The notes below the pieces were generated by a model. That model was given only the letters and a program-made list of their open reading frames with translations. It ran no database searches and had not been told where the DNA came from. The position numbers were made by a program, and so were the translations under genes. This document shows, piece by piece, positions 6,217 to 63,270 of a stretch of 64,000 nt of DNA; the first letter of the stretch is position 1; every line of letters begins with the position of its first letter. Location of the stretch: positions 67,823,072 through 67,887,071 of the forward strand of contig OU862907.1 in assembly GCA_917880885.1 (NCBI GenBank), in the 5' to 3' direction. This DNA comes from Limnephilus marmoratus (taxonomy: Eukaryota; Arthropoda; Insecta; Trichoptera; Limnephilidae).

Positions 6217-7084
6217 ATGCTGCGGCTACATTAGCGGGCTATGGCGAATATTCGCGTTATCGCGATAAGTGTGGCCGGGTAGATCGTAGCATCGCGTAAT
6301 AAACGGGCGATGACGAATGCCTATCGGGGCACTGTCGGTAAACTGGCGCGCATCAAAGGGTTTTGTCCAGTGGCGGCGTAAGGGGGGGGCGGAGGGGGCG
6401 GTCCGCCCCGGGTGCCAAGCACCAAGGGGTGACAACGACAACTCACTCGCATAGCCAAATAATGCGTTAAAAATCTCCCTCTCTAAAGACATGTCAATAA
6501 TTAACTACCTACTTTTGTACCTAGCTACTTACATACTAATATCATATTTTGAAACGCATTGCAATTATATTTTCTTTTTTCCGAATATAATTTCTAATTC
6601 CCTAAAAGAATGAAATCATGTTAGGCTTGGTCTGATCTTATACCGCATGTAACATCGAGCGCAGTGGGAAATATTAATGAAAAATGTAGACGTGTCCGTT
6701 AAACGACTATCAGAGACAAGATGGAGTGCTCATCACGACGCTGTTTAACCACTGAAGAATAATTTTAAGAAGCTTGTATCAACGCTCGAAGAGATGTGTC
6801 GATGTGTGATCCCAGCTGTGTGTGACATCAGTTTTCTATGCTATCTTTCCTTTTGGTGTGAAACTCCTGGAAGAAGTTAATCAGACAAAAAAGTATAGGC
6901 AAAAATCCGGGCTATAATTGGAAAAGTTTGTAATAAAAAATAAAGCTCTTAAAAATTTTCTTCAAAATCAACGCAACCAAATAGTAGAAAAGGTTGATAT
7001 GATTTTAGATTTTCACGGCCAAAAATTTTATGGTTATTTCCTTTTGGGGTATTATGCCGTGTTGCGCTACCTCCTCCTTTAGCC

Positions 7085-7119
7085 AACGTTTCGGACAGCG
7101 TTACAGTGTCCATCATCAG
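7085..7119 (-). ncRNA. Hammerhead-ribozyme-like core, opposite arm
   Basis: This is the mirror of the + strand core. On the - strand it reads CTGATGA, an extra T, GGACA...TGTCC, GAAACGTT. All core positions are intact. Stem I pairing is weaker than in the other arm because the upstream flank is the loop sequence. Confidence 0.55.
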
Positions 7120-7130
7120 ACAAATCTGCC

Positions 7131-7165
7131 CTGATGATGGACACTGTCACGCTGTCCGAAACGTT
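7131..7165 (+). ncRNA. Hammerhead-ribozyme-like core
   Basis: CTGATGA (7131-7137), one extra T, stem II GGACA/TGTCC (7139-7143 and 7153-7157), then GAAACGTT. The ACGU after GAA can act as a palindromic stem III with U as the H17 cleavage position (a GUU site). The GGC that follows can pair with the GCC just upstream (7128-7130) as stem I. Palindromic stem III implies action as a dimer, as described for Penelope-like elements. Activity is inferred only. Confidence 0.6.
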
Positions 7166-7895
7166 GGCTAAAGGAGGAGGTAGCGCAACACGGCATAATA
7201 CCCCAAAAGGAAATAACCATAAAAGTAGAAAAGGCTATTTATTTGCTATGCAACAAAAAAATGTGTGGACTTAGACATTCCGATTGAAGGAAGAAGAGGA
7301 AGGAGGAGATGTCGAAAACGTATGCCTGGAGAAATGGCCCAATATGTTGGACCTAACCAGAGGAGCTGCAGAGAACAATGTTAGAATGTCACGATAGATT
7401 TTACGAAGAAAATTTTTTTAAGAATTAGACCTTCGTCGCAGGTTTTTTTAACAATTTGTGTTTCGGTGGCTTCACGGGAAAAAAGCTTTTCGAAGTTAAA
7501 ATTAATAAAATCTTAATTAATGTCCACGATGAGCGAAGCGCGAATAACCAATCTTTCAATTAATTTTGGTAATGTGATCGAATATTTTAGTAAAATAAAG
7601 CCTCGTAAGCATGTTTGGTACGTGGTGTTTTATTTTAAGTAGGGGTGCTCAATACAAAACCGCCCCGGGTGCCAATCTACCCTACGCCGCCACTGGTTTT
7701 GTCGCGACAATATTTGCTTGCGTGGCTACATCTGCGTAACTTCAGTGCAGTTCAGCCTACGTCGCGACCTATGGCGATGTGAGCGCCAACGCGATATGGA
7801 ACTAATGTAGCCAAGAACATCGCGTATACCCGTTTACGATGTTTTTAGCACGCCAACGCGACACGAATCTTCGTCCGCTAGTGTAGCCGCAGCAT

Positions 7896-12180: not shown

Positions 12181-12987
12181 ATGCCCAACAATCAGAATCT
12201 AGTGCAAACTAGGTCTAAGGCATCGGATTCTCCAGCAGTAAACGAGGATCATTTTGGAAAAATTGTAAAATACATGGATAAAAAAATGGAAGAATTTAAG
12301 CTACAAGTTTTTGCAAAAATTGAACTTGAATCGTCAACACTGAAAAAAAATCTCGAATCTGAGATATCCGACATGAGAAAAAGCATTGAATTTATTGGTC
12401 AGCAATATGATGAAATAACTAATAATATCGGAAACATGATGCAATTAAAAAAAAATGTGGATAACTTGGAAAACGCAAATTCTATCAAAGATCTAAAAAT
12501 AAAACATTTAGAAATTCGTCTAGCTGATATAGAACAACAAAATGTAAGCTATAATTGTGCTGAATTGTCTGGCCTAGAAACCTTGATGAATGAAAATTCT
12601 GTGGAAACCGTGGAAAGATTCATAAAAAAATTTGACATTCGGATTGAACCAGGTAGAATAAATAAAATTACTCAATATCCTGATAAAACTATTAATAAAC
12701 CCGGAGCTCAGAGGATGATCATCCATTTCAAAGATGAAAAGTCCCAATTTGAATTTCTCAACGCACGCAAAAGTATAAAGCAATTGAAGGACAGGAACAT
12801 CTTCATTGGAGAAGTTCTATCATCATATTCCAAAACCCTTCTTTGGAAAACTAAACAAAAAGCTAAAGAAGCTAAATTTCAATTTGTGTGGTTTCGGAAC
12901 AATAAAATTTGCGTGAAAAAGAACCCAGAACTATCTTCAAGAGTCATTATCATCAAACACGAAGATGATTTGAATAAATTGTTGTAA
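12181..12987 (+). CDS. LINE ORF1 protein (coiled-coil, FP-like domain)
   Basis: An intact 268-residue frame starting at ATG 12181. Residues about 20-130 are a Lys/Glu/Leu-rich coiled coil (for example KKMEEFKLQVFAKIELESS and LEIRLADIEQQN). Residues about 135-265 resemble the FP-like nucleic-acid-binding fold seen in many insect LINE ORF1 proteins (CAELSGLETLMNEN, RMIIHFKDEKSQF, IFIGEVLSSYSKTLLW, NNKICVKKN). The expected role is to coat the element's RNA as an RNP and act as chaperone during target-primed reverse transcription. ORF2 follows 51 bp downstream after a 19-A run. No zinc knuckle is seen. The frame is free of stops although ORF2 is broken, so the copy is fairly young. Confidence 0.85.
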   Translation: MPNNQNLVQTRSKASDSPAVNEDHFGKIVKYMDKKMEEFKLQVFAKIELESSTLKKNLESEISDMRKSIEFIGQQYDEITNNIGNMMQLKKNVDNLENANSIKDLKIKHLEIRLADIEQQNVSYNCAELSGLETLMNENSVETVERFIKKFDIRIEPGRINKITQYPDKTINKPGAQRMIIHFKDEKSQFEFLNARKSIKQLKDRNIFIGEVLSSYSKTLLWKTKQKAKEAKFQFVWFRNNKICVKKNPELSSRVIIIKHEDDLNKLL

Positions 12988-13038
12988 TCCTCCCCCCTAA
13001 GTCTGACACTTTTATTGAAAAAAAAAAAAAAAAAAAAA

Positions 13039-16020
13039 ATGGATGATTTGGAAAACATAAATAATATAACCGACAATACTGAACCTAACATAACTTTTGA
13101 AGATTCATTATCTTGCAAAAATTTTTTGAAAGATTCAAAATTTTCTTTACTATGCATGAATATTAGAAGTATAAGCAAGAATTTTGATGAAACTGTTTCT
13201 ATGCTGGATTGCATTAATCATCGTCCGGAAGTACTAGTCTTTACAGAGGCTTGGCTGAGCAGTGTAATTAATATGCCTAGCATTCCAGAGTACGTAGTCT
13301 ACAAAACTATGATGAACAATTTACAAAATGATGGAGTAGTTATCTACGTAAGACAAAACATTCAGGTAACTGTTGAGGAAATTGCTCTCCCCAGTGCAAA
13401 CTGCTTGAAAATGCAATTATCCAATACATTATATTTATTAGCTGTATATCGATCTCCATCCCAGACTAAAATAGACAACTTTCTCGACTCATTGAATAAA
13501 TTCCTTGCATCTGAATCCTTGCAAAATAAGGAGATTATCTTATGTGGGGACTTAAATATTGATACCCTAGATTTGAAGAACATAAAAACACAAAAATACC
13601 TATCACTTCTGGCGTTTCATGGTTTGAAGCCCATAATAAACTCACCAACAAGAGTAACTCCTAATAAATCTAGCTGCATTGATCATATTATGGCAAAATC
13701 AAAAATTGAAACCACAAGGAGCAGCATTTACTACTGGCATAACAGACCATTATGCAATTTTAATGAAGTTTATGAGCTTAAATCTACATAATATTTCAAA
13801 TAATAATGTAAAACCTAAATTTGTTGTTGACAACCACCTCTTGAAGACCAAATTAAAGGAGGAATCCTGGGATATAGTTCTATCAACAAATGACGTCAAT
13901 CTGGCAACTGATAATTTCATAAAATGTTTGAAAACCCATGTGCAAAGTTGTACGTCAGTACAAAAAAAGAAACATATTATGAAACATCTAAAACCATGGA
14001 TAAACGCTGGATTAATCAAATGCCTCAGAACACGTGATAAATTGCACAACAGATGTAGAAAAGAAAGCTATAACTTGGAACTGTTTGAATATTATAAGCG
14101 ATATCGAAACTGGTGTTCTAGGATAATACGAACAACAAAACAAGCATATTTCAGAAGAAAATTAGATGACGTCAATGGTAACATTAAACAACAGTGGAAA
14201 ATTATAAAGGAGGCCATAAACCTTAAAAAGGAACAAACTACCATAAAAAAATTGAAAATTAATAATATTATTACTTCAATGGAAGAGAGTCCAAATATAA
14301 TTACTAATCACATTAATGACTTCTTCAGTGATATTGGTCCAAGTTTCGCTAACAATTTGTGCAGTGATAATAAAACCAGTGAGACGTATCTTGTGAATGA
14401 TTTTAAATCTGAACTTCAGATTACCGGGGACAATTTTGACTTTAAGCCAACTAACATTTCTGAAGTGACAAATGTGATAAATGATTTAAAAATGTCTTTC
14501 TCATGCGGTATTGATTCTATAAGTGTTATGATATATAAACTCCATGTATCCGAATTAGCTGGTCCCATATCTCATATTATTAATATTAGCTTCAAGAGTG
14601 GGATGTTCCCTTCTCACTGTAAGAAAGCTAAAGTGATTCCTCTTTTTAAAGGTGGAGATCAACTAGATGTCAATAATTATAGACCTATATCCCTACTCAA
14701 CACGCTTTCAAAAGTAATAGAGAGATTGGCTAAGTCGAGATTGGTATCATTCTTAGAAACAAATAAACTACTCTCTAGCAATCAGTTTGGTTTCAGAGAA
14801 AATAGAGGAACAAGTGATGCAGTATTGAGGGTATTGTCGAAAGTCACTAGTGCCCTGGATTATGGAAACAAAGCCTTAGCTGTGTTTTTAGATCTATCAA
14901 AGGCATTTGACACGGTTTCCCATGGATTACTCCTCAAAAAATTATCTTCTCTTGGCATTTCACATTCCAGTACAGCATTAAGTTGGTTCAAATCCTATCT
15001 TAGCGATAGAACACAACAAGTAGAGATAAATAATAATTTAAGCATTAGCAAACAAATCTCATTTGGGGTTCCACAAGGTAGTGTACTTGGACCAATATTG
15101 TTTTTAATCTACATTAATGATTTATGTAATTTAGATATTCCTGGTAATATTGTTAGTTTCGCAGACGACACTGCTTTAATATTTGAGGGTAAAACCTGGA
15201 AAGATGCTTTTGACAAATGTGATTCAGGATTAAGAATAGTAAAGAGTTGGCTAAATAATAACATCTTAACTTTGAATACATCAAAAACAAAATATGTAAC
15301 TTTTAGCATATCATCAAAAAGTCAGCCTTCCAACACTCATAATCTAATTATACACAATTGTCTGCAAAATTGTAATTGTAATTGCCACCCTTTAGAAAGA
15401 GTAGACTGTATAAGGTACCTAGGTGTAAATATTGATCAATATTTGAGATGGAATGACCATATTGACATGTTAACAAAAAATATCAGGAGACTTACCTATA
15501 TTTTTAAAGAACTTCGTAATATACTGGATAAAGATAAATTAAAATCTGTCTATTATGCCTTAGTACAATCTCGACTTTCTTACAATATTGTATGCTGGGG
15601 ATCCTGTCTAAAGTCCAATGTAGAGCCACTAAATATTGCTCACAAATTAATTCTTAAGGTCATGTACAAAAAAAAATTTCGTTATCCATCGAAACTTCTT
15701 TACAAGGAATCTGACGTTATGAGTATAAAACAGCTGTACATCTCTAAAATAATTTGTAAATTTTTTATCAATATTTATTCTGCAGAAAGAACCCAACAAA
15801 TCCATACCACTAGAATTGGCTCAAGAATGAACTTTGTCGCAATAAGTACTAAAACATCTTTTGGCCAAAGAAACTTTTATATCAGGCTCCACTTCTATTT
15901 AATATTCTGCCAGATTACATAAAGTCTTCCAATTCATTAGCCAAATTTAAAAAAAATGTTAAGATTTTTGTGTTGTCAGAGGATTGGCATACTATTTTTT
16001 CATCCTTGGCCTTTTTTTAA
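13039..16020 (+). pseudogene. Jockey-type LINE ORF2 (endonuclease + RT), two frameshifts
   Basis: The sensible start is ATG 13039 at the end of the A run; the upstream poly-Lys start is an artefact. The N-terminal AP-endonuclease blocks are CMNIRSISKNFDE, VLVFTEAWLSS (catalytic Glu), ILCGDLNID and SSCIDHIM. A 1-nt shift between about 13705 and 13735 separates these from GITDHYAIL (the SDH-type block) and the RT. The RT has VIPLFKGGDQLDVNNYRPIS (14634-14693), FLDLSKAFDTVSH, FGVPQGSVLGPILFLIYIND (15062-15121) and SFADDTALIF (catalytic FADD, about 15157-15186). A second shift near 15870 moves the tail (LPDYIKSSNSLAKFK) back to the first frame, with a stop at 16018. Apart from these two compensating indels the polymerase is complete. 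Confidence 0.9.
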
Positions 16021-26864: not shown

Positions 26865-28195
26865 GTTGGGTTAATTTTCGGGATTAGTGTCCATGGATTT
26901 TACGAATAATTGTTAGAAAAAACTTTAGGTTCGCCTTAATCACTATAAAAGGAAACATTTTGCATCACGGGTAGCGGAAAATGATGCATTTTAATTTTCA
27001 GTTGCGTAAAATTAAATTTCACTTCGCGAACCGATACGGCGACAATTCAGCGGCCATTCCGTCACTGTTATGTTGGTATCCCTGATACAAACAAGAGCTA
27101 GATTCGGATAAGGCATAAGGAATAAGGCGCGTAATTATGAAAAACAGAATTAATAATATAATGTAAACGAACCTCTAATCAGAACCACTTCAGAGTCTAA
27201 CTGAGGCACTGGAATGGAGACAAACCATTCAAATCCTGGGATGTTTTTTAAAATAAAGATAATATACACAAATCCGCTACACAAACCCTGCTTTGCCGGA
27301 CAAACCATTCAAATCCTGGGATTTTTTTTAAATAACAATAATATACACAAACCCGCTCTACAAACCCTGCTTTGCCAGACAAACCATTCAAATCCTGGGA
27401 TGTTTTTTAAAATAAAGATAATATACACAAGCCCGCTACACAAACTCTGCTTTGCCAGACAAACCATTCAAAACCTGGGATTTTTTTTAAATAAAGATAA
27501 TATACACAAGCCCGCTACACAAACCCTGCTTTGCCGGACAAACCATTCAAATCCTGGGATTTTTTTTAAATAACAATAATATACACAAACCCGCTCTACA
27601 AACCCTGCTTTGCCAGACAAACCATTCAAATCCTGGGATGTTTTTTAAAATAAAGATAATATACACAAGCCCGCTACACAAACTCTGCTTTGCCAGACAA
27701 ACCATTCAAAACCTGGGATTTTTTTAAAATAAAGATAATATACACAAGCCCGCTACACAAACCCTGCTTTGCCGGACAAACCATTCAAAACCTGGGATGT
27801 TTTTTTTTAATTATGATGATATGCAGCTCTCGTAGTTTAACCTCAAATTTCCGTATTATCCGTGAGGTGGACTAAATGCATTTTCTGTTGTGTTTTCATA
27901 ATTACGTGCCTTTTCATATATCCCACGAAGTCGGCTATAGTCGTATTTAGCTCTTCGCTAATATTATCAGAGATACCAACATAACAGTGATGGAATGGCC
28001 ACCGATTGTCGCCGTATCGGTTCGCGAAGTGAAATTTAATTTTACGCAATTGAAAAATATAATGCATCATTTTCCGCCACCCGTGATGCAAAAAGTTTCC
28101 TTTTATAGTGATTAAGGCGAATCTAAAGTTTTTTTTCTAAAAATTATTCGTAATAACCATGGACACTTCGATCGAAAATTTACCAAATGTTGTCA
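26865..28195. mobile_element. Long-inverted-repeat element, about 1.3 kb
   Basis: Arms of about 220 bp (26865-27088 and 27965-28195) are inverse copies, about 85-90% alike by eye. Shared phrases are 'tttcacttcgcgaaccgata', 'aaggaaacattttgcatcac' and 'gtgtccatgg'. The centre is a minisatellite (27220-27800). No transposase frame. This foldback-like plan (long arms, tandem repeat centre) is not one I can assign to a superfamily. No target duplication was found. Confidence 0.7.
27220..27800 (+). repeat. 80-bp minisatellite, 7 full units plus one partial
   Basis: Units start at about 27221, 27301, 27380, 27460, 27539, 27618, 27698 and 27777 (period 79-80). Each has 'caaaccattcaaatcctggg', a T/A-rich spacer with 'ataatatacacaa' and 'ctacacaaaccctgctttgcc'. 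Variant letters suggest a higher-order pattern, because units 2 and 5 and units 3 and 6 resemble each other. The frames across it (27214-27573 and 27690-27875) are repeat artefacts, since the period is close to, but not always, a multiple of three. Confidence 0.95.
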
Positions 28196-30320: not shown

Positions 30321-31255
30321 GTAATTATTTTTATGCCAGACAGCTGTTTCGCCTGAGGCTAAGCCACTTACAGACGATATATTTATATTATTTCTGGAGA
30401 GGTGAATTGCTTTTAATTTTTATTACCTATCCCCTTATTGACTTCCGAGTAAAAAGTTGGAAATTCTGAATGGTTATTACTCTTTTTAAAGTTTCCCCAA
30501 TTACTGCTGCGTTTAAATTTGACTAAAGTTCGTTAGATGAGTCCAAATGATGACTCAGGGGTTTATTTCCAGCATATTTAAGTATTTTTGTGGTCATTTT
30601 AGAGAAAATAAAAATACTTAATTGTTCTGGAAAAAGAAATCCCTGAATCATCATTTGGAAAACTGACTAAACGACCAACGACCTTCAATCAAATTCAAAC
30701 AATGCAGTCATTTTGGAAACCTTAAAAATAGTAATAAGAATTAATAATTTCCATCGTTTTACTCGGAAAACACAGACACAGGGCATAGCAAAGATATTCA
30801 AATACAAAAGAGATAATCTATGGTGTCCGCGCATCAGTCGGCGGACTACGCCCTAATTAGAGTAGTTTGAATACAAAAATAATTTCTTCATTTCGTTGAT
30901 TTTTTGAAGATGTGCTTTAGTATTGGCTAAAAATATTGTTTGAATACGGAAAGAATTAGTTAATTTAGTTTAACGTTCGTTTGGTTTATACGTTAATTAT
31001 TCGTTCATTTAGTTTATTTGTTAATTGGTAAACAATATCGGCGACACCCGGAAGCGCAGTCCCACGTAGTAAAAACTGCTAATAGCACATCTACTTATAT
31101 TTTAATATCTTTGGGGCATAGGCAATAAAAATAAAAGCAATAAGCTTTCACCACAAGTACCTATCTAGAAATAATATTAATACATTGTCTGTAAGGGGCT
31201 TAACCTAAGTTTGATAATGCCTTCAGATGGCGAAACAGCTGTCATGATAATAATT
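30321..31255. mobile_element. Penelope-type repeats in inverted pair
   Basis: The left block (30321-30395) and right block (31167-31255) are inverse copies sharing 'cagctgtttcgcc', 'gctaagccacttacagac' and 'taatattatttct'. The 770 bp between show no reading frame of note. The right block has the hammerhead-like core at 31211-31243, while the left has lost the CTGATGA part. The terminal phrase GGCGAAACAGCTGTC is characteristic of Penelope-like element ends. Confidence 0.55.
31211..31243 (+). ncRNA. Hammerhead-like core, degenerate
   Basis: TTGATAA (consensus CTGATGA, two changes), an extra T, stem II GCC/GGC (31219-31221 and 31229-31231), then GAA and the perfect palindrome ACAGCTGT as stem III, followed by C as H17 (a GUC cleavage site). 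Two substitutions in the catalytic box suggest it is inactive. Confidence 0.45.
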
Positions 31256-36246: not shown

Positions 36247-36778
36247 ACGGCCGGCGTAGTCCAGCGGTAAGGCTCTTGACTAGCACTCTGAAGGTCGCGG
36301 GATCGAACCCCGGCCGCGGCGTTGCAAATAAGTTTTATTTGTTTTTCTACCTCAATGTGCACTCGTTAAGATTAGAAGTAAAAAAATAATATGTGTAAAT
36401 TTAAAAAAAATGTAAAGGAAGTTGAAGACCTCTGTAGAAAGATTTGATATTACAAATATTTAAAGAAAATAAATTAATTAATTTGTGTTATTTCACAATG
36501 TATTCATTTAAAATAATATATAGTATACTTGCGGCACGTTCCAGAGTGGAAGATACTCTCAGTATCGCCCTGGTGTAAGACCACTATTCAGAATTGAAAC
36601 GTTGCTTGAAATGGCTTTAGCCGTGTTTGGTGACCAGATCTGAATAGCCAGGTACTTCCCCACCTTCCTCTTCCCTATCTCTTTCCCCTCCCCACTGCCT
36701 CCACATACCCCAATTGGGGATGCCATAGTTCCACTGGCTACAGACGGGGGCAGTTGGGACTCTTGTGCGGTATTCATG
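36247..36778 (+). mobile_element. SINE with tRNA-like head, long copy
   Basis: The head (36247-36330) has 'gtagtccagcggtaaggctc' and 'gcgggatcgaaccccgg'. An extra AT-rich segment of about 150 bp (36335-36520) lies between head and body. Body blocks then run to 36778. Lies in candidate intron 2 of the NACHT gene. Confidence 0.8.
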
Positions 36779-36884
36779 TAAAATTAAAAAATATATATTT
36801 ATTTACCTTTATATAAATATATTGAGAACCTCTGAATTCTATTTTTAATTATAATTCATACTTTTAATACATGTTTTAAAATTT

Positions 36885-37745: not shown

Positions 37746-38769
37746 ACATGTTAAACGAAATAAATAACAATAATTGAAGTAAGATTTTTTTTATTACTGC
37801 TTTAATACAAATCAAAATTAATAAACATGTTAACTACTTCTTGGAACAAACTTTTCAATAATCAACACTTAAGGCGATCCACTAGTTCACTACTGTGCCG
37901 TGGACAGTAGTTCTTCGGTGGATGCCATAGGGGTCACTTTGAATAACCGAATTCGTCGACTAGCGGCCGTATTGTAAAATATCAACGCGAAAATGCATAT
38001 TTTATTTTATTTTGGGAAGATTGGGTGTAAATATCAACTTTTTTTGCGATTATTATAAAATAAACTGAATTTGCCACATTACACAATAAAACCATATCCG
38101 AAAAGGGGTTTATAAATAGGAGAGTTTGGACTTGAAAGTGTGTTTTTTAGACCTTATACTTTATTTTTTTATAGGCTTATTAAAAGACTTATAAAAAAAA
38201 TGACCGATATTTTAAAGGGCCAAGGTATGTTCTACACGTAGTATTTAATTGAAGCATCTACAATACTTCTAAGTGATCAAATTTTCAAAACAAAAACATA
38301 TGATTTTGCATTATTTACTATGGCTTCATCTTAAAGGAAGGACCTCATTAATTGAGTATTTTGCTGATGATGGTGGGCGACATAAGAGCTACGAACTCAC
38401 CCGAAGTCAGCCGAACGACAAGTTCCAAGAAGTACTTAACATGTTTTGTTATTTTTTATAAATTTTGTTAATTTTATAGAAGTAATAGGTATAAAGAAAA
38501 TATTATTTTTTCACATGATTCAATTATTGTTTATTTTTTTGTTATTTATTTAATTTAACACGTGTTAACTGTCTGAATAAGTGTAAAAATAAGTCTAATA
38601 ACAGTAAACAATCGATTTTTAACATGTCTAAAAAAGTTTCTGTTTCGACAGATTTTCTGCGAATCTAGATTTTTTTGCCGAAACTTGCCGAAACCGAAAC
38701 CGGAACGGAACCTTCAGTCGATCACTAAAAAAACCCTTGGTTCTTCTTTTTATTCATAACATTTTTTTA
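37746..38769. other. Non-coding middle of the hAT element
   Basis: AT-rich. A 62-codon frame at 38273-38461 has no known domain. A segment at 37880-37975 (actgtgccgtggacagtagt) is GC-richer and unexplained. Confidence 0.3.
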
Positions 38770-39541
38770 TCTATAATATAAAAATGAATCGCTAAATTTG
38801 TTGGTAAGCCCAAATCTCGAGAGCGGCTGAACCGATTTCGCTAATTCTTTTTTTAAAATATTCCTTGAAGTTCGAGGATGGTTCTTACGGAGAGAAAAAA
38901 TAAGAAAATTGCGCAGAAAATTAGATAATAACATAAAACATCGCACGTTTGACAGTTCACGTGTTAGAGAATGACATTTTGCAAAACAATGAATGATTGT
39001 TCAATCAGGATTCTATTTTTGAAAAGTTGAAAAATTTATTTAAAGTAGGTACTCCCCTAATAGTTTGAATCGAATAAAGAATTTTAGATATTTTAAATAG
39101 GTACCTACCTAAGTTAGGTACCAAATTTAACATACATGAAAGATGGAAATTTGAATAAAAATTGTAAAAGGTGGCAAGCGGGCTGTTTAAAAAGTGAATG
39201 TACTGGGTTTGAATATATGGAACGCGGGAGGAGGGTTGGCGGGATGAGGGAGCGAGAAAGGGAAGAGGGAAGGCGGGGAAGCTGGAAGGGGAACGCGGGA
39301 CGGGAAGTGGAAGTGTGAGGGGGGAGGGGAACTCGGGAGGGGGGTTCGCGGGACGGAAGAAGGGGGGGTGGAGTTGGGAGAGGGAAGGTGGAGGTGACGG
39401 AGTGGGAACGCGAGAGAGGAAGAGGACGCAGGAGAAGAAGGGGAGACGGTAGGGGAACGGGACGAATGGGAAAGGAGACACTCACAGGGAGAAACAGTTT
39501 CTTTATTAAATGGCATAGCAACGCATGCCGGGACCAGCTAG
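38770..39541 (+). mobile_element. GA-rich non-autonomous Helitron, complete
   Basis: Begins A|TCTATAATATAAAAATGAAT and ends CATGCCGGGACCAGCTAG|T, the canonical Helitron boundaries with A/T flanks and no duplication. The 5' third is 'aatctcgagagcggctgaac' and neighbours. The 3' third (39225-39480) is almost pure purine on the + strand (gggaggggaactcgggaggg type). Sister copies are at 62517-63270, 63276-63650 and, reversed, at 48860 and 29930. The long frames here (39005-39521 -, Pro/Ser/Phe-rich) are composition artefacts. Confidence 0.85.
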
Positions 39542-40941: not shown

Positions 40942-40971
40942 TGTGTATTATTGTTTCAGTTAATTCCAGCT
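40942..40971 (+). promoter_or_regulatory. Splice acceptor and start context of the NACHT gene
   Basis: A pyrimidine-rich 'tgtattattgtttcag' ends at 40959. TTAATTCCAGCT leads in frame to ATG 40972 (AGCTATGG, with G at +4 and A at -4). This means the large exon is probably not the first, or at least that a 5' UTR intron exists. A second AG (ttaattccag, ending 40969) is also possible as acceptor. Confidence 0.5.
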
Positions 40972-43900
40972 ATGGAAGTCGACCGCAAATTACTGTTGGT
41001 GTTGCAGCATTCAAAGGAACAACTGGTTGATTCCCTCCTGGAGTCCTCGGAGGAGTACCTTCTGGATATCCTGTACACAGACCCTCACCCCAGCCACCTC
41101 ACCCTGGCGCTGCTTGCAGAGGCTGTTTACACCGAGAAGGAGCCGCGAGAAGCCGACCAAGCTTACGGGGAGAGACTTCCTCTGCCCGAGGGCTGGCGGC
41201 TGCTGACGACTGCTTCCAATTCAGACTTCCTTAATAAGTACTTCGGAGCTGCGTTCTTTAACGCCGGCTCGCAGCAAGTTGTGGTGGCCCATCGGGGCAC
41301 CATTCCAACCAAGGTAGGAGCGCTATATACAGATGTGAAGGGAATATTCTTTAATAAATATACAAGTTGCATGAATTCTTCAGTGACGTTTGTGGACTAT
41401 GTTAGTCAGGTCATACATAATGTTAACTCTAAATCAGAAACAGTTAAAAGGCGTTATAACCTTACCATAACCGGTCACTCCCTCGGGGGCTGGCTGGCAC
41501 AGGTGACCACTTTTACAGCGAGGTATGTGAAGGTGTCTGACGGGGCACTAATAAAGAACACCAGCGATGGAGTTCACGCTAAGGCCGTGGTGTTCGACAG
41601 CCCCGGGGCAAAGGATATGTTGCACAAACTTCAGGATAGGCATTACCCTAGATATGGAACAGAGTTTTTGGACAGATTAAACAGGTTGGACATAACGGCT
41701 TATGTTTCGGCGCCAAACCGCATTAACACTTGCGGAGAACATCTCCGAAAAGTTTATCGCGTTTTTATAGATTTATCTCAATACAAAGTCGAAGATTTGG
41801 AATCTTGGTCATATAATGAGAAGACTCACGCAATTGGTAATTTTGTGAAAGCTTTTAAAGAAGATTCGCCAGATCTATTGGAAGTGTTGGACTGGGCTAA
41901 GAACAGCAAAGAATATAAATACCTTTTTGAGCACCGAACGCTGAACCAGACCAATGATTTCCACGTAGATTCGAAAAAAAAAGAAAAAATAGAATTTTTC
42001 GAAGAAATAAAAAAACGGTATCAGGTGGTTTCTTTTGAGCCTCAAACTAACTTCAAAAGTAATTTAAACGCCTTTTCTGATGCTGAAGTGCAAATTCTTG
42101 ATTGTTTGGTGATTATTCAAAAGCAAACAGATATTACGATTTTAAATGAATTTCTTTTAAAGGAAAAACTCGAATTAAAAAGCGGTAAATTATTTGCCGA
42201 TTTTGAAATAAATCATATGACTAGAACAATTAGCTGCAAATCTAAACAATTGTTGGAAGAAGTAAGTGCGCGTGTAAAGCAGTTGATGCGGTGGAAGGGG
42301 TCAGAGTTCTCCAAGGCAGTTGAGGAGCAGAGTAGAACCACAGACTTGATTTACCGCCGTGAGGGTCAGACCTATTTGGACTCCATACAAAAGTCTTGGT
42401 TAAATTTCATAGATTCCTTCGGGCTTAGGGACTTTTTGCTTTCTCGCACCGAGCAAACTTTCTGTATAGTTACACAAGATAGTTCATTCGAGATGACGCG
42501 CCTTCATAACATTGTATTTTCCATGTCAGATCCACTTAATCCATATACAAGCGAAGGTCATTATACTTTCTTAGCTTGGCCGCGAATACAATCACTTTTT
42601 AATATTTACGGTTCCCCCGTCGACCAGAATGACCTGATGATAGTTGACGCTACTTTGTCCCCACCTACAAGCTCAGAACTTCTCACTTTTTTAAATAAGT
42701 ACGCACTCGTTAATTATTCTCCCATCTTGAAAAAACTTATTTTTATCTTGTCACATCCAATAGACACCATCAACGTTAAAACATTTAATGCCAATCGAAA
42801 AATTAAACTAACAGACTTAACCGCCCAGTCACAAGCAATTATATTTAAAACAAAAATGATAAATTTTAACGGAAATGTAGAGCTTAGCTTCCGAGAGATT
42901 TTGGGAAAAAATTATTCTCTAAGTGATTTTAATGAGGTCATAAGTTCGAATTGCTTAAATAGCATTTTAATAAAAGAAAACTTTGTCTTTAAAATAAAGG
43001 ACACGCGTCCAACAAATAGTGATCTTCAATCATTATTAATAAAAACAAATATTAACATAACAAGCAAGGAACATGTCTTAAAATGCGTAGATTTACCAAA
43101 CTCCCTGGTGGTGTTCAGCGGGTTGAACCGCGGGGATCTGGAGACTGGGGCCGGCTGGGAGCAGCTCCAGGGGAAAGAGATCCTCCTCGCCGAGGGAGAT
43201 GAAGAGCAGTTCTTTAAAGAAACCTGCGATGAGAACCAAGATAAAACTATTTATCTGCTGGAAGTGTCCGGGGACGTCAAGGCAGAAATCCGCTGTAAAC
43301 AAATATTTGATAGAGCATTTTATGTCTCCAGGAAGTTTCGGCATCGAGCATCTATTAACTTACAAAAGTTCGCTGAAAGTAAACATCCTGATGACCTGTT
43401 AGTTATTAGTTGTGAGGAACATAAGACCTTACTTTTAGAAATGGCAAAGGATTGTAAGGAAAGAGAAGCGTTCAAAGAAAATGTACTGATAGCCAACACC
43501 CAAGAGCAAGAGGTAGATATCATTCATAAATATTCTCATAAGAATATTCATTTCATGAAAGTTGATGAAACAGATGAACAGAATGAAAGTGTTGATATTT
43601 TAGAATCATATGAATGCTATGACAGTGACGACAGTGATGTCAGTGACGACAGTAATGTCAGTGATGATAGTAAGGTCAGTAACGATAGTGATCAAAGGGT
43701 TGAAAAGTATCCTAGCGAAATAGAGTGGCGTTTTTCCCACGGGTCTGCAAAGAGCCTGCTCCCTTGTATGACCACCAAATTCTTGAAGCCCATAGATGAA
43801 CTGTCCTTAAGCAAAACAGAACGCAACTTGGTGGTCATAACAGACGAGCCCGGGATGGGGAAAACAACTTCCCTGGCGAGATTGTCTCGGCTCCTTGAAG

Positions 43901-46323
43901 CTCCGTGGGTTATATATATGGAGTTTAAACTATTCAAAAAGCAAATAGACAGTTTATCAGATCAGCTCACTCCCCAAAACGTTGCAACTTTTCTATTAAG
44001 TGCGTCCGGCTCTGATTCTGACAGTACCCCGAATCTAGCTGAAGGATTATTATTATATTTTCTAAATAGTAAAGCATGTTCCAAGCGGGTCGTTTTAATA
44101 TTTGATGGATTTGATGAAATAGATGATTACGTTAAAAATAAAGATAGTTCTAAAGATAAAATCGTGAAACTTTTAACTTTTTTGCAAAGTATACCGACGA
44201 TTCAAGTATTTTTGACGGCTCGAAAATATTTGAAGGAATCATTAGAAACAAATTTAAGTCAATTATCTACATCATTCGTGACGCTCACCGCACAAAAGCA
44301 ACTAGACTTTTTATTTACATTTTGGCGGTCCTTTCTTCCTCTCGAGCTGGGAGAGTACGGAGAGGAAGAGGAGGGACGCCTTAAGGAATATGCCGGAGAG
44401 GTGCTACGGCAAGCAAAGGTAGTACTGGGGCCAGACATGAACCGCTTCATGGGGGTTCCCCTGCAACTGAGGATGCTGGCCGAAATCTTCAGGCCGCAAA
44501 GTCATCTGTTGCGACAGTCTCCGGAACTCTTATTAACACAAATCAACATTGTTAGCGCTCCAAATTTGTACAAACTGTATGTAGATCTGAAATACCAAAT
44601 TTATTTACAAGAAAAAACCTCCAAAGATGACGTCTTATCCGAAGAGGAAATACGTCTGTATCTTTTAGATGTAACGGAAACTCACGGCAAACTTGCTTTC
44701 AGATTATTCTTTCCTCATTTCTACATTCAGAACTTAGACCCTATTAAAGAAGAGTGGTTAAATACGTTAAACAGAGTCGGTTTGGTTCAAACAAAGGGAG
44801 ACGGTGATTGCCAATTTGTCCATCGCACATACGCAGAATATTGCTGTGCACAGATGGTTGTCAACTGGCTCAATCAACGAACCCTCCATTGCAGGTATAA
44901 ACTGTTTAAAGAAATCATTATCCCTCAAATCCTGCTTCATCCGGACAGTAAGATCATCCGGATGTTTTTAAATGTGCTATTACATGAAACAACAATATCA
45001 GAGACAGCTCTAGAATCAAATAGTAAATGCTTTAGACGATTGTGGAATGAAGACAGTTCCATATTCAGGAATAGTGAGCACCAAACTGTTCTTCATATTG
45101 CTGTCTTAGAAAATAATGTTTATATCGCCACACTGCTCCTCAGTAGATTCAGTGCAGAAGAAGCCTTTGTCTCTTTAATACATCAATATGATCTTGAAAA
45201 TAATACTGCAATAAATTACTTAAATAAACCTAAACTACATAATGTCAATAAAAATGAATTAGTATTGGATAAAATGACTACAAATATTTTTCAACGAATC
45301 GAAGTATGTTCTGATGAAAATAAGGCAAATATTTTTTTTGCAATTTTATTTAACCGGAAAGTTTCAAATTTTGAATCTGCGGAAATTTTTTTTATTGAAA
45401 GATTATTTAATCGACTTTCCACTCAAATAGAAGAAAAGGAAGAAACCATTATTAAAAGTAATATTAATTTATTTTATCGGCTTATTAGTAAGTATGTAAG
45501 TTGTAAGTCAAGAATATTTCATAGAGTAAAACAAGTTGAATTAGTAATTAAACCATTTATAGAGGCTGTTTTAAATAATAATGTTAAATATGTTCGAAAA
45601 ATATTATTTGAAACGTTAAAAAATAATGTTGAGCGGTATTGCTTTTTATTAATGAAACATAAAGATCAGTATATGTGCACAGTCCTTCACATTGCTATAG
45701 CGGAGCGCCACCTCGATATAGTTAGATTACTCGGGGAGCAAACTGCTGTTCCCTTCACACTATTAATGGCACAGAGGGATGAGTTTATTAAGACTCCTTT
45801 ACTTACAGCTGCTAAGTGGCGGGGTGAACTGGATATTATTAAGTACTTGGTGGAGCGCGGTGCTGATATTAATATACGCAGTGAGGATGGCGAGTCTGTT
45901 CTGATGTATGCGGCCTTTAGTGGAGAGTTACTAACTGTAAAGTATCTAGTTGAAAGAGGTGGTGATATCCATGCTACAGATTGGAGAGGCTGGACTGTAC
46001 TACATTACGCGGCACGGCGGGGACATCTCCCGGTAGTAGAATACTTCCTGCAGCAGGGGGTGGACCCTGACAGGGTAGACATGGAGGGATGGACCGCACT
46101 AACTAGGGCATCAGATGCTAAGGAGTGGGATATGGTGCGGCTGCTGCTGGAGAGGGGAGTGGATGTTAATGCGGATGGAGGTGAAGCTCTTAGATTTGCT
46201 ATAAGGGGGGTTAAATGGTCTATAGTGGAGACTTTCATAAATAAAGGAGCAGCCATTAAAGAAAGTCAAATAAAAAATAATTTATCCGAATTTAAAATAA
46301 AATATCCGAATTATGAATTTTAA
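40972..46323 (+). CDS. Lipase - NACHT NTPase - ankyrin repeat protein (NLR/STAND-like)
   Basis: One frame of 1,783 codons. Residues about 40-300 are a class-3-type alpha/beta hydrolase: VVVAHRGT, nucleophile elbow G168-H-S170-L-G172-G, VFDSPGA (204-213), and a candidate catalytic His at 286 (THAIGNF). Residues about 300-880 are an AT-rich, Lys/Glu-rich linker of unknown fold. Residues 882-908 are Ser/Asp repeats. The NACHT domain spans about 944-1300: Walker A DEPGMGKTT (958-966, with Asp where Gly is usual), Walker B VVLIFDGFDEIDD (about 1040-1052), FLTARK (sensor Arg1084), GVPLQLRMLAEIF (1161-1173) and FVHRTYAEYCCAQ (1282-1294). One ankyrin-like repeat lies at about 1370-1392, and about six at 1564-1760 (TVLHIAIAERHLDIV, TPLLTAAKWRGELDII, TVLHYAARRGHLPVV). 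By architecture it should be an intracellular sensor in which ligand binding at the repeats drives NTP-dependent assembly and activates the lipase. That is inferred, and substrate and trigger are unknown. I chose ATG 40972 because the frame upstream starts only at TTG. The coding exon is intact in a transposon desert, so it is probably under selection. Confidence 0.85.
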   Translation: MEVDRKLLLVLQHSKEQLVDSLLESSEEYLLDILYTDPHPSHLTLALLAEAVYTEKEPREADQAYGERLPLPEGWRLLTTASNSDFLNKYFGAAFFNAGSQQVVVAHRGTIPTKVGALYTDVKGIFFNKYTSCMNSSVTFVDYVSQVIHNVNSKSETVKRRYNLTITGHSLGGWLAQVTTFTARYVKVSDGALIKNTSDGVHAKAVVFDSPGAKDMLHKLQDRHYPRYGTEFLDRLNRLDITAYVSAPNRINTCGEHLRKVYRVFIDLSQYKVEDLESWSYNEKTHAIGNFVKAFKEDSPDLLEVLDWAKNSKEYKYLFEHRTLNQTNDFHVDSKKKEKIEFFEEIKKRYQVVSFEPQTNFKSNLNAFSDAEVQILDCLVIIQKQTDITILNEFLLKEKLELKSGKLFADFEINHMTRTISCKSKQLLEEVSARVKQLMRWKGSEFSKAVEEQSRTTDLIYRREGQTYLDSIQKSWLNFIDSFGLRDFLLSRTEQTFCIVTQDSSFEMTRLHNIVFSMSDPLNPYTSEGHYTFLAWPRIQSLFNIYGSPVDQNDLMIVDATLSPPTSSELLTFLNKYALVNYSPILKKLIFILSHPIDTINVKTFNANRKIKLTDLTAQSQAIIFKTKMINFNGNVELSFREILGKNYSLSDFNEVISSNCLNSILIKENFVFKIKDTRPTNSDLQSLLIKTNINITSKEHVLKCVDLPNSLVVFSGLNRGDLETGAGWEQLQGKEILLAEGDEEQFFKETCDENQDKTIYLLEVSGDVKAEIRCKQIFDRAFYVSRKFRHRASINLQKFAESKHPDDLLVISCEEHKTLLLEMAKDCKEREAFKENVLIANTQEQEVDIIHKYSHKNIHFMKVDETDEQNESVDILESYECYDSDDSDVSDDSNVSDDSKVSNDSDQRVEKYPSEIEWRFSHGSAKSLLPCMTTKFLKPIDELSLSKTERNLVVITDEPGMGKTTSLARLSRLLEAPWVIYMEFKLFKKQIDSLSDQLTPQNVATFLLSASGSDSDSTPNLAEGLLLYFLNSKACSKRVVLIFDGFDEIDDYVKNKDSSKDKIVKLLTFLQSIPTIQVFLTARKYLKESLETNLSQLSTSFVTLTAQKQLDFLFTFWRSFLPLELGEYGEEEEGRLKEYAGEVLRQAKVVLGPDMNRFMGVPLQLRMLAEIFRPQSHLLRQSPELLLTQINIVSAPNLYKLYVDLKYQIYLQEKTSKDDVLSEEEIRLYLLDVTETHGKLAFRLFFPHFYIQNLDPIKEEWLNTLNRVGLVQTKGDGDCQFVHRTYAEYCCAQMVVNWLNQRTLHCRYKLFKEIIIPQILLHPDSKIIRMFLNVLLHETTISETALESNSKCFRRLWNEDSSIFRNSEHQTVLHIAVLENNVYIATLLLSRFSAEEAFVSLIHQYDLENNTAINYLNKPKLHNVNKNELVLDKMTTNIFQRIEVCSDENKANIFFAILFNRKVSNFESAEIFFIERLFNRLSTQIEEKEETIIKSNINLFYRLISKYVSCKSRIFHRVKQVELVIKPFIEAVLNNNVKYVRKILFETLKNNVERYCFLLMKHKDQYMCTVLHIAIAERHLDIVRLLGEQTAVPFTLLMAQRDEFIKTPLLTAAKWRGELDIIKYLVERGADINIRSEDGESVLMYAAFSGELLTVKYLVERGGDIHATDWRGWTVLHYAARRGHLPVVEYFLQQGVDPDRVDMEGWTALTRASDAKEWDMVRLLLERGVDVNADGGEALRFAIRGVKWSIVETFINKGAAIKESQIKNNLSEFKIKYPNYEF
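43615..43695 (+). other. Ser/Asp-repeat linker in the NACHT protein
   Basis: Codons 882-908 spell imperfect D-S-x-V-S-D units built from 'gacagtgatgtcagtgacga'-like DNA. The low-complexity acidic stretch separates the lipase-linker part from the NACHT. It could be a flexible hinge or casein-kinase target, and length variation between individuals would be expected. Confidence 0.7.
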
Positions 46324-46439: not shown

Positions 46440-47240
46440 ATTTTTTTGCACGAGAGTCCCAACTGCTCCCGTATGGAGGCGAAGAGAATATGGCATCCCA
46501 AAGTTTTTTCCGTAATTTTTTTTTTGTAAATTCTGCACTGGAGTCCCAACTGCTCCCTATCAGGGTAAGTTGTGAAGCTGAAGGTAGTGGGGAGGGGAAG
46601 GAGATGGAAAAGAGGAAGGTTGGGAAATACCTGGCTATTCAGATCTAGTCACTAAACACAGATAAAGTCATTTCAATTCTGAATGGTGGTCTTACACCAG
46701 GGCGATACTGAAAGTATCTTCCGCAAATAGATCTCATATTATGTTAAATGATTAAATTAAATTTATCTGTGATTTGAACCCGCGACCTCCGGGTTGATAG
46801 TCGAGAAGTTGAAAAGCAAACGTTGGGGAAGTACCTGACAATTCAGCTCTAGTCACCAAACATGGCTAAAATCACTTCAAGCGACGTTTCAATTCTGAAT
46901 GGTGGTTTCACACCAGGGCGATACTGAGAGTATCTTCCTCAAATAGACCTTGTATTATTAAAAATGATTAAATTGTGAAAACACAAATCAATCTAATAGA
47001 ATGTATCTGCTGACGCCGCGATATGAACCCGCGACCTCCGGATTACTAGTCGAAAGCCTCGACCACGGAGGCCGTCTTAAGTTGAAAAGTCACAATTGGG
47101 GAAGTACCTGGCTATTCAGTTCTGGTCACTAAACACGGCTAAAGCCGTTTCAAGTAATGTTTCTATTTTGAACGGTGGTCTTCACCAGGGTGATACTGAA
47201 AGTATTCTTTGTATATTATTTTTAATTAATTAATTGTGAA
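46440..47240 (-). mobile_element. SINE pieces in tandem, three to four copies
   Basis: Partial copies start at about 46450, 46548, 46807 and 47085. Each shows the body blocks ('ttctgaatggtggtcttaca', 'agggcgatactgaaagtatc'), and two show a reversed tRNA-like head ('tgatttgaacccgcgacctc' at 46766 and 'atatgaacccgcgacctccg' at 47022). All are in the same orientation, which suggests tandem duplication or repeated insertion just downstream of the NACHT gene. Confidence 0.75.
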
Positions 47241-51795: not shown

Positions 51796-51995
51796 TCGGC
51801 ACTCGGCACTTGGCACTCGGCACTCGGCACTCGGCACTCGGCACTCGGCACTCGGCACTCGGCACTCGGCACTCGGCACTCGGCACTCGGCACTCGGCAC
51901 TCGGCATTCGGCACTCGGCACTCGGCACTCGGCACTCGGCACTCGGCACTCGGCACTCGGCACTCGGCACTCGGCACTCGGCACTCGGCACTCGG
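51796..51995 (+). repeat. 7-bp satellite (tcggcac)n, about 28 copies
   Basis: Period 7, with two variant units (ttggcac near 51809 and an attcggc unit near 51904). Because 7 is not a multiple of 3 and the unit makes no stop in any phase, every frame is open on both strands (repeats such as AECRVPS on - and ALGTRHS on +). The 86-113 codon frames here are artefacts of the array. Confidence 0.97.
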
Positions 51996-54846: not shown

Positions 54847-55151
54847 CATTGGCGGACCGTGAGTTTTCAGTGAGCTAGAATGCTAAGATTGAAAAATACG
54901 ACATTACTGATGTACCTAGTTGTAGCAGAAAATTATTTTTATTTTTATTTTTTAATTTCAATTTTTTGTATGAGATCTTTCAGTCAAGGGGGGCATCGTC
55001 CCCCTAGACTGGAAGAATCCTGAATTCTTCATACAAAAAGTTAAAATTAAAAAAAAAAAAAAAAAATCATTTTCTGCTACAACTACATCAGTAATGTTGT
55101 ATTTTTCAATCTTAGCATTCTAGCTCACTGAAAACTCACGGTCCGCCACTG
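54847..55151. mobile_element. hAT-type MITE, 305 bp, exact duplication
   Basis: The ends are CATTGGCGGACCGTGAG and the inverse CTCACGGTCCGCCACTG, with inverted arms of about 70 bp ('ttttcagtgagctagaatgc' and its mirror). Flanked by ATTGTATA at 54839-54846 and 55152-55159. Long A and T runs inside. A single-arm relative is at 3298-3476. Confidence 0.85.
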
Positions 55152-62510: not shown

Positions 62511-62516
62511 GTTCTA

Positions 62517-63270
62517 TCTATAATATAAAAATGAATCGCTAAATTTGTTGGTAAGCGCAAATCTCGAGAGCGGCTGAACCGATTTCGCTAATTCTTTTTT
62601 TAGAATATTCCTTGAAGTTCGAGGATTGGTCTTACGGAGAGAAAAATTAAGAATATTGCGCAGAAAATTAGATAATTACAGAAAACATCGCACGTTTGAC
62701 AGTTCGCGTGTTAGAGAATGACATTTTGCAAAACAATGAATGATTGTTCAATCAGGATTCTATTTTTGAAAAGTTGAAAAATTTATTTAAAGTAGGTACT
62801 CCCCTAATAATTTGAATCGAATCAACAATTTTAGATATTTTAAATAGGTACCTATGTTAGGTACCAAATTTAATATACATGAAAAATGGAAATTTGAATA
62901 AAAATTGTAAAAGGTGGCACGCGGGCTGTTTAAAAACTGAATGTACTGGGATTGAATATATGAAACGCGGGAGGAGGGTTGGCGGGACGAGGAGCGGGAA
63001 AGGGAAGAGGGAAGGCGGGGAAGGTGGAAGGGGAACGCGGGAGGGGAAGGGGACGTGTGACGGGGGAGGGGAACTCGGGAGGGGGGTTCGCGGGACGGGG
63101 GAAGGAGGGGTGGAATGGAGTGGGGAGAGGGAAGGTGGAGGAGACGGACTGGGAACACGAGAGGGGAAGAGGACTCAGGAGAAGAAGGGGAGGCGGAAGG
63201 GGAACGGGACGAATGGGAAAGGACACCCAGGGAGAAACTATTTCTATAGCAACGCATGCCGGAACCAGCT
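62517..63270 (+). mobile_element. GA-rich non-autonomous Helitron, second copy
   Basis: Begins A|TCTATAATATAAAAATGAAT and is colinear with 38770-39541 at high identity. It ends 'catgccggaaccagct', but the CTAG terminus is altered (CTTT). The purine block (62960-63230) differs from the sister in unit number. The long frames (62787-63382) are composition artefacts. Confidence 0.8.

What the first reader, a model, noticed from the sequence alone, without database searches (positions are those of the whole stretch)
40972..46323. An intact lipase-NACHT-ankyrin gene: an NLR/STAND-like sensor in an insect genome
A single 1,783-codon frame joins a class-3-type lipase (GHSLGG at 168-173, VFDSPGA, candidate catalytic His286), a NACHT NTPase (Walker A 958-966, Walker B with D1045 and D1048-E1049, the GVPLQLRML and FVHRTYAEY motifs) and about six ankyrin repeats. 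Effector-NTPase-repeat is the plan of animal NLRs, fungal NLRs and bacterial antiphage STAND proteins, and fungal NLRs also use hydrolase effectors with ankyrin sensors. Canonical NLRs are thought to be missing from most insects, so a lipase-armed one surviving in dense transposons deserves study. Its immune role is inference from architecture.
Basis: partly seen in the sequence, partly recalled or inferred. Interest (0 to 1): 0.88.

Follow-up and report, generated by a model that had tools for sequence, protein, structure and literature searches.

The report
Insect lipase-NACHT-ankyrin gene, shared with symbionts
An insect genome carries an intact gene built like an immune sensor (a fat-cutting enzyme, a molecular switch and a binding tail) whose named relatives sit in mites, a spider and bacteria that live inside arthropod cells, so it was probably passed between arthropods and their symbionts.

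Summary

The lipase belongs to a distinct family found in a mite (Blomia, 9 proteins), a spider, a Wolbachia, Rickettsia, Amoebophilaceae and unnamed environmental proteins, often fused to a STAND NTPase: NACHT with ankyrins or NB-ARC with TPRs. A single arthropod clade is rejected (p-AU 0.0095), which suggests more than one crossing between bacteria and arthropods. Cut out, the lipase matches RLip, a cytotoxic secreted Rickettsia lipase (51 bits, far below that family's cut-off).

Most likely it is a ligand-gated lipase: ankyrins sense, NACHT oligomerises, the lipase attacks membranes. Architecture and kinship are shown; sensing, activity, expression and immune role are inferred. It has the plan of an NLR but is no canonical animal NLR (no LRR, no death-fold domain). 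NACHT proteins in arthropods and phage WO were already in print.

The parts
40972..46323 (+). Whole intact ORF, 1,783 aa, lipase - middle segment - NACHT/WHD - ankyrin
41152..41931 (+). Class 3 lipase domain (residues 61-320)
41473..41490 (+). Nucleophile elbow GHSLGG, Ser170
   Evidence: Ser170 present in 38 of 38 aligned rows
41596..41598 (+). Asp209 in FDSPG, near-invariant acidic residue
   Evidence: 37 of 38 rows; N in Domibacillus
41689..41691 (+). Asp240, which by spacing could be the usual acid of class 3 lipases
   Evidence: 26 of 38 rows, 21 of 21 of the window's own clade; whether the acid is 209 or 240 is undecided
41827..41829 (+). His286, candidate catalytic His
   Evidence: 31 of 38 rows; Y in 3, gap in 4
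41932..43773 (+). Middle segment (residues 321-934), family-specific; only a weak low-complexity Pfam hit (Osteopontin, 863-917)
   Evidence: AlphaFold confidence low
43558..43722 (+). Ser/Asp-rich acidic linker (residues 863-917) before the NACHT
   Evidence: translation; low-complexity hit only
43774..45171 (+). NACHT NTPase with following helical/winged-helix module (residues 935-1400)
   Evidence: NACHT 29.6 bits; fold matches NLRP3, NLRP9, NLRC4, NOD2
43843..43869 (+). Walker A DEPGMGKTT (K964)
44101..44124 (+). Walker B FDGFDEID (D1045, D1048-E1049)
45172..45771 (+). Linker (residues 1401-1600); third-position GC 0.17 over residues 1401-1580
45772..46263 (+). Ankyrin repeats (residues 1601-1764), putative sensor
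   Evidence: Ank_2 130.8 bits, Ank 6 stretches
40942..40959 (+). 3' splice-acceptor-like sequence (TGTGTATTATTGTTTCAG) 12 bases before the ATG
   Evidence: sequence; such sites occur about once per kb in the window, so weak
46555..47205 (.). Three copies of an interspersed repeat starting 232 bases after the stop; another copy lies at about 36473-36791 before the gene. Not terminal repeats of a gene-carrying transposon, since matching copies lie at six other places in the window (about 9.5, 21.3, 25.7, 32.2, 56.3 and 62.2 kb) in both orientations

Best explanation
The gene encodes an insect STAND protein of a family that arthropods share with their intracellular bacteria, reached by horizontal transfer (most likely from bacteria to arthropod, though the direction is not proven). 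It probably works as a ligand-gated lipase. At rest the NACHT module holds the protein closed; a ligand bound by the ankyrin repeats lets the NACHT exchange nucleotide and oligomerise; the clustered N-terminal class 3 lipases then hydrolyse membrane lipids and damage or kill the cell, or a membrane-bound intruder. Shown: intact frame, the three domains, conserved Ser/Asp/His and Walker residues, kinship, and rejection of one arthropod clade. Inferred: activity, gating, ligand, outcome and direction of transfer.
For: Three domains by profile and fold. Ser170 in 38 of 38 rows and Asp209 in 37 of 38. Relatives with lipase, then NACHT, in the same order in Blomia, Parasteatoda and environmental data, with ankyrins; Wolbachia of Andrena with the same lipase, 43% identical over 294 residues. 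Lipase-NB-ARC-TPR relatives in Rickettsia and Amoebophilaceae; NACHT-ankyrin relative in a Rickettsiella. Parasteatoda pairs with Wolbachia in the lipase tree (support 99/96; 100/98). Arthropod rows as one clade rejected, p-AU 0.0095. The lipase is the best conserved part (33-43% against ten relatives, NACHT 25-29%; the ankyrin part matches at E below 0.001 in 3 of 10), as expected for a fixed effector with a changing sensor. The NCBIfam model of RLip matches the cut-out lipase at 51.1 bits; RLip is reported to be a secreted lipase, cytotoxic in a Ser138-dependent way (PMC12507273: abstract, passages and section 25). Of four Bacillota lipases run as a control, three gave no RLip match and one gave 20.3 bits.
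Against: No expression, activity or infection data. No close relative with DNA, so dN/dS could not be computed. The RLip match is far under that family's 440-bit cut-off; the whole window protein gave no RLip match at E 0.01, and neither did P0022 at 0.01, P0013 and L008 at E 1 or P0015 at E 1. The Wolbachia protein P0015 shares the lipase but not this NACHT: the NACHT profile did not list it at 1e-3. In the NACHT tree it sits on a long branch beside another long row, a join that may be false. His286 is replaced in 3 rows, and the Asp240 position varies among bacterial rows.
Confidence: 0.55

Rival explanations
1. A captured symbiont effector kept for some use other than sensing (for example digestion, a symbiont-control factor, or a selfish toxin-like element), with the NACHT-ankyrin part inherited as baggage or as a targeting device.
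For: The lipase is related to a secreted bacterial effector; ankyrin-protein genes are common bacterial transfers into insects (ants: 245 of 497 transfers; PMC13320244, passages); four of the nine Blomia proteins match the NACHT profile only in pieces (P0009, P0010, P0011, P0013), which could be decay or gene-model error.
Against: The window copy keeps lipase, NACHT and ankyrin motifs; the same three-part plan recurs in relatives.
Confidence: 0.25
2. A recent, non-functional insertion of symbiont DNA into an insect chromosome whose frame has not had time to decay.
For: One long open frame; no known expression; only one copy in the window.
Against: No other bacterial gene recognised beside it; best lipase relative is only 47% identical, so no recent donor was found; heterogeneous third-position GC of 0.17-0.52.
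Confidence: 0.1
3. An ancient animal NLR inherited by descent in arthropods and lost in most insects; bacteria took it from arthropods.
For: Bordenstein and Bordenstein place the WO NACHT inside a more diverse arthropod set (PMC5062602, passages). Arthropod rows outnumber the one Wolbachia row among named members of the window's lipase clade.
Against: Arthropod rows as one clade rejected (p 0.0095). The wider lipase-STAND family is found in Rickettsiales and Bacteroidota.
Confidence: 0.08
4. Contamination of the assembly by a symbiont or prey.
For: Relatives are often bacterial.
Against: Interspersed repeats with copies elsewhere in the window start 232 bases after the stop, and the window holds LINE sequence; no N in the window.
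Confidence: 0.02

Closest known systems
Lipase-NACHT-ankyrin proteins of Blomia tropicalis and Parasteatoda tepidariorum (named only 'hypothetical/uncharacterized')
   Same: Same lipase family and NACHT module; 40-41% identity in the lipase for P0012, P0016 and P0019
   Different: Different ankyrin parts; four of nine Blomia proteins match the NACHT profile only in pieces
Rickettsia and Amoebophilaceae lipase-NB-ARC-TPR proteins (L001, L002, L005, L006, L010)
   Same: Same lipase family, same effector-STAND-repeat plan
   Different: NB-ARC instead of NACHT (below Pfam cut-off in L001 and L005), TPR instead of ankyrin; bacterial
RLip, secreted lipase of Rickettsia (NF052630)
   Same: Homologous lipase, 51.1 bits over profile positions 30-257 of 357
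   Different: No NTPase or repeat part mentioned in what I read; the window protein is far below the family cut-off and as a whole did not match at E 0.01
Fungal NLRs with lipase N-termini (SesB-like or patatin, NACHT or NB-ARC, ANK/TPR/WD40)
   Same: Same logic of hydrolase - STAND - repeats; NACHT with ANK and NB-ARC with TPR are common pairings in fungi too (PMC12258605, PMC4986451, passages)
   Different: Another hydrolase class; no organism-named hit or 22 is fungal
Animal NLRs (NLRP, NOD2, NLRC4)
   Same: NACHT fold with helical/winged-helix modules
   Different: Those have LRRs and death-fold domains (recalled); this has ankyrins and a lipase
Plant EDS1/PAD4/SAG101
   Different: EDS1 partners act downstream of NLRs and are not fused to an NTPase (recalled)
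Prophage WO NACHT-ankyrin-latrotoxin protein and arthropod NACHT homologues
   Same: NACHT plus ankyrin shared between an arthropod symbiont and arthropods (PMC5062602, passages)
   Different: No lipase mentioned there ('lipase' 0 occurrences); kinship of its NACHT to this one not tested

Membership tests
Class 3 lipase (Pfam Lipase_3) | Profile above gathering score | tested here: met
   22.7 bits against 22, marginal
Class 3 lipase (Pfam Lipase_3) | Alpha/beta-hydrolase fold of the class | tested here: met
Class 3 lipase (Pfam Lipase_3) | Ser-Asp-His triad | tested here: inconclusive
   Ser170 and His286 in place; acid may be Asp209 or Asp240
NACHT STAND NTPase | Profile above gathering score with Walker A and B | tested here: met
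   29.6 bits against 26.7; motifs, Walker A with D in first place
NACHT STAND NTPase | NBD plus helical and winged-helix modules | tested here: met
Canonical animal NLR | C-terminal LRRs | tested here: not met
   Ankyrins instead; no LRR family among the 14 Pfam hits
Canonical animal NLR | N-terminal CARD, PYD or other death-fold domain | tested here: not met
   Lipase instead; no such family among the 14 Pfam hits
Canonical animal NLR | Ligand-driven oligomerisation and immune output | not testable with these tools
   needs protein work
Fungal-type NLR | Enzyme - NACHT/NB-ARC - ANK/TPR/WD40 plan | tested here: met
   definition from PMC12258605 passages
Fungal-type NLR | Descent from fungal NLRs | tested here: inconclusive
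   none of the 11 organism-named of 23 hits, nor the one named of six, is a fungus; no fungal sequence was put in a tree
RLip (NF052630) | Score above the family's curated cut-off | tested here: not met
   51.1 bits against 440 for the cut-out lipase; whole protein no match at E 0.01; homology only
Avs/antiphage STAND (PADLOC) | Match to an Avs model | tested here: not met
   window protein: only two matches, both in the ankyrins; the relative L002 matched Avs4 weakly (15.5 bits, 48 residues)
Prophage WO / arthropod NACHT family of Bordenstein 2016 | Kinship of the NACHT domains | not tested
   sequences not at hand; no record of the phage collection matched residues 1-1450 at E 0.01

The most novel reading that the evidence does not exclude
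Arthropods have repeatedly captured a lipase-STAND weapon that circulates among their intracellular bacteria and now use it as a cell-autonomous sensor that kills infected cells or breaks symbiont membranes: an NLR-like immune layer in insects, mites and spiders made from symbiont parts rather than inherited from animal NLRs.
Probability: 0.3. Interest if true: 0.88.

Novelty: new variant of a known kind. Interest (0 to 1): 0.64.

Why it matters
It ties together three lines that have been separate: lipase-armed NLRs of fungi, ankyrin/NACHT gene traffic between arthropods and their symbionts, and a rickettsial lipase effector reported to be toxic in eukaryotic cells. If the arthropod copies are expressed and gated, it would show that animals can rebuild an NLR-like system from symbiont genes, and give a tractable test of which side, host or symbiont, the family serves.

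Tried and rejected
A large transposon carrying the gene: the inverted repeats around it looked like terminal repeats 10 kb apart, but the same element recurs at six other places in the window in both orientations, so they are interspersed repeats; by eye a stretch near 36250-36320 looks tRNA-like, but ARAGORN and Rfam found nothing in the window. gwv_1093 of phage WO as a relative: it matches only in the ankyrins and has no lipase or NACHT family hit. Phages: 15 records matched the whole protein, each with its best place in the ankyrin part; with residues 1-1450 alone, none. IMG/VR: 17 pattern matches, none confirmed. Plasmids: 7 records, only 'Mbeg1-like' or DUF2974 proteins, 26-36% over the lipase (one looked at). 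A splice acceptor just before the ATG: such sites occur about once per kb, so it is weak. Known defence families: the window protein matched only in the ankyrins; L002 matched Avs4 weakly. Profile A4 against PDB was swamped by ankyrins; A5, a lipase-only profile, replaced it. The fold of the middle segment was not usable (low pLDDT).

Rows dropped: first lipase tree (38 rows), L007 (frame broken in the lipase) and L016, L017; second (35 rows), also P0021, L014, L015. NACHT tree (21 rows): P0002, P0009, P0010, P0011, P0013 (partial or doubled) left out; P0015, P0022-P0024 were not listed by the NACHT profile at 1e-3. Four groupings were tested on the second tree; the two joining Parasteatoda with Blomia (with or without the window) were rejected, the other two were not.

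Papers: in ten searches of the held library no listed title, start of abstract or passage I saw describes a lipase-NACHT-ankyrin arthropod protein or its link to RLip. In one search, 20 of 383 papers were listed. That library lacks most subscription papers and bioRxiv. Seven papers were looked into by passages, one of them also by abstract and one section; none was read whole.

Full report
What is there. The frame at 40972-46323 (+) is open for 1,783 codons, which chance gives with odds of about 10^-55 at its composition, and its codon positions differ in GC (0.47, 0.32, 0.39). Pfam finds Lipase_3, NACHT and ankyrins, each above its cut-off, the lipase only just (22.7 against 22).

Surroundings. 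Copies of an interspersed repeat lie on both sides of the gene, the nearest 232 bases after the stop, and the window holds LINE sequence. No bacterial gene was recognised near it: of the nine other ORFs of 150 aa or more, four are LINE parts and five have no Pfam match at E 0.01. This speaks against contamination. Of the 120 listed matches of the LINE reverse transcriptase, three carry an organism name, all moths, so the host is probably an insect near Lepidoptera; this is indirect.

Relatives. Residues 1-900 found 23 proteins: nine of Blomia tropicalis, one of Parasteatoda tepidariorum, one of a Wolbachia of Andrena, and twelve from environmental data without organism name. Residues 700-1430 found six more, one of them named, a Rickettsiella of Dermanyssus gallinae. 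Both searches scored only the roughly 8,000 candidates sharing most words. A scan of GTDB genomes found 17 loci: two in Amoebophilaceae, seven in Rickettsia, one in another Rickettsiales, three in Proteobacteria MAGs and four distant ones in Bacillota. Eleven of the 17 were scanned with Pfam (not L007, L012, L014-L017). Seven show an NB-ARC module and TPRs (L001, L002, L005, L006, L010, L011, L013; NB-ARC above cut-off in five, below in L001 and L005); six of these also show Lipase_3 above cut-off, and for L011, where 25 of 26 families were shown, the lipase rests on our own profile and the RLip profile. L003 shows lipase just under cut-off and TPRs, L008 lipase and ankyrins both under cut-off, L004 the lipase alone, L009 a short frame with the lipase just under cut-off. 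The Wolbachia protein has an OTU domain, ankyrins, the lipase (Pfam 19.6 bits, below cut-off; our profile 365 bits), an AAA/STAND-like NTPase (Pfam below cut-off; FxSxx_TPR 71 bits of 300) and more ankyrins. P0014 and P0017 have lipase (P0017 just under cut-off), NACHT and ankyrins. So one lipase family rides on two kinds of STAND module and two kinds of repeat.

Trees. The lipase tree splits a clade of the window, Blomia, Parasteatoda, Wolbachia and environmental rows from a clade of Rickettsiales, Amoebophilaceae and other bacterial or environmental rows. Parasteatoda pairs with the Wolbachia (99/96 and 100/98). Holding the window, Blomia and Parasteatoda together costs 22.9 log units, p-AU 0.0095; Parasteatoda with Blomia p 0.005; window with Blomia p 0.255 and window with JGI rows p 0.308 are not rejected. 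More than one crossing between bacteria and arthropods is therefore suggested, under this model and with long end branches for the window and Parasteatoda; hidden paralogy cannot be excluded, and the source of the insect copy is open. The NACHT tree is poorly resolved and the window sits beside another long row, a join that may be false.

What is conserved. Ser170 is present in 38 of 38 rows, Asp209 in 37 of 38, His286 in 31 of 38 (Tyr in 3, gap in 4), and Asp240, the usual acid by spacing, in 26 of 38 but in all 21 rows of the window's clade. Against ten relatives the lipase is 33-43% identical and the NACHT part 25-29%; the middle is 21-25% in the six that align over 140 columns or more; the ankyrin part matches at E below 0.001 in three.

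The RLip link. NCBIfam's profile of RLip, the secreted Rickettsia lipase, matches the cut-out window lipase at 51.1 bits, E 1e-13, well under the family cut-off of 440; the whole window protein gave no such match at E 0.01. It also matches L005 (51.9), P0004 (50.1), L001 (43.0), L010 (38.4), L004 (37.0), L002 (35.6) and L011 (35.4), but not P0013, P0015, L008 or P0022 at the limits used. Control: of four Bacillota lipases three gave none and one 20.3 bits. RLip is reported as secreted, lipolytic, and toxic to yeast and HeLa cells depending on its active serine (PMC12507273; abstract, passages, section 25). This makes a membrane-damaging output plausible for the window protein; it is not shown.

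What is known. NACHT homologues of a prophage WO protein in Bombyx, Culex and Daphnia are in print (PMC5062602, passages). Fungal NLRs with SesB or patatin lipases, and the pairing of NACHT with ankyrins and NB-ARC with TPRs, are in print (PMC4986451, PMC12258605; passages). A NACHT ATPase in R. felis that is pseudogenised in other Rickettsia is mentioned in PMC4316617 (passages). Ankyrin genes are frequent bacterial transfers in ants (PMC13320244, passages). What I did not find in the searches listed is this lipase family joined to STAND modules across symbionts and arthropods.

Verdict. The likeliest mechanism is a ligand-gated lipase (0.55 for the whole statement); effector domestication without sensing is the main rival. 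The window's own genome could not be searched (tool busy, 13 tries), so copy number, expression and selection remain open.

Noticed in passing
12181-15922: A LINE-like element with an ORF1 carrying a Baculo_FP_2nd domain and an endonuclease/reverse transcriptase, split over three ORFs.
   Followed up: partly
27218-27806: Tandem array of a 79-base unit, 7.4 copies, 91% matches.
   Followed up: no
51796-51995: Tandem array of the 7-base unit TCGGCAC, 28.6 copies, 97% matches.
   Followed up: no
38765-39539 and 62512-63270: A 780-column duplicate at 91% identity in the same orientation, with purine-rich simple repeats.
   Followed up: no
7026-7224, 54847-55151, 30443-30768, 4305-4687: Self-complementary (palindromic) stretches of about 200-400 bases, 71-96% matched to their own reverse complement; foldback-like elements.
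   Followed up: no
P0002 (Blomia tropicalis): Protein with two successive lipase-NACHT units, the second lipase matching the profile in two pieces with a part missing; tandem duplication in the mite or a joined gene model.
   Followed up: no
P0015 (Wolbachia of Andrena nigroaenea): OTU protease-like domain fused ahead of the same lipase; a profile that includes it matched the solved wMel OTU.
   Followed up: no
45172-45711: Third-position GC drops to 0.17 between NACHT and ankyrins, against 0.52 in the lipase, as if the gene were a mosaic.
   Followed up: no
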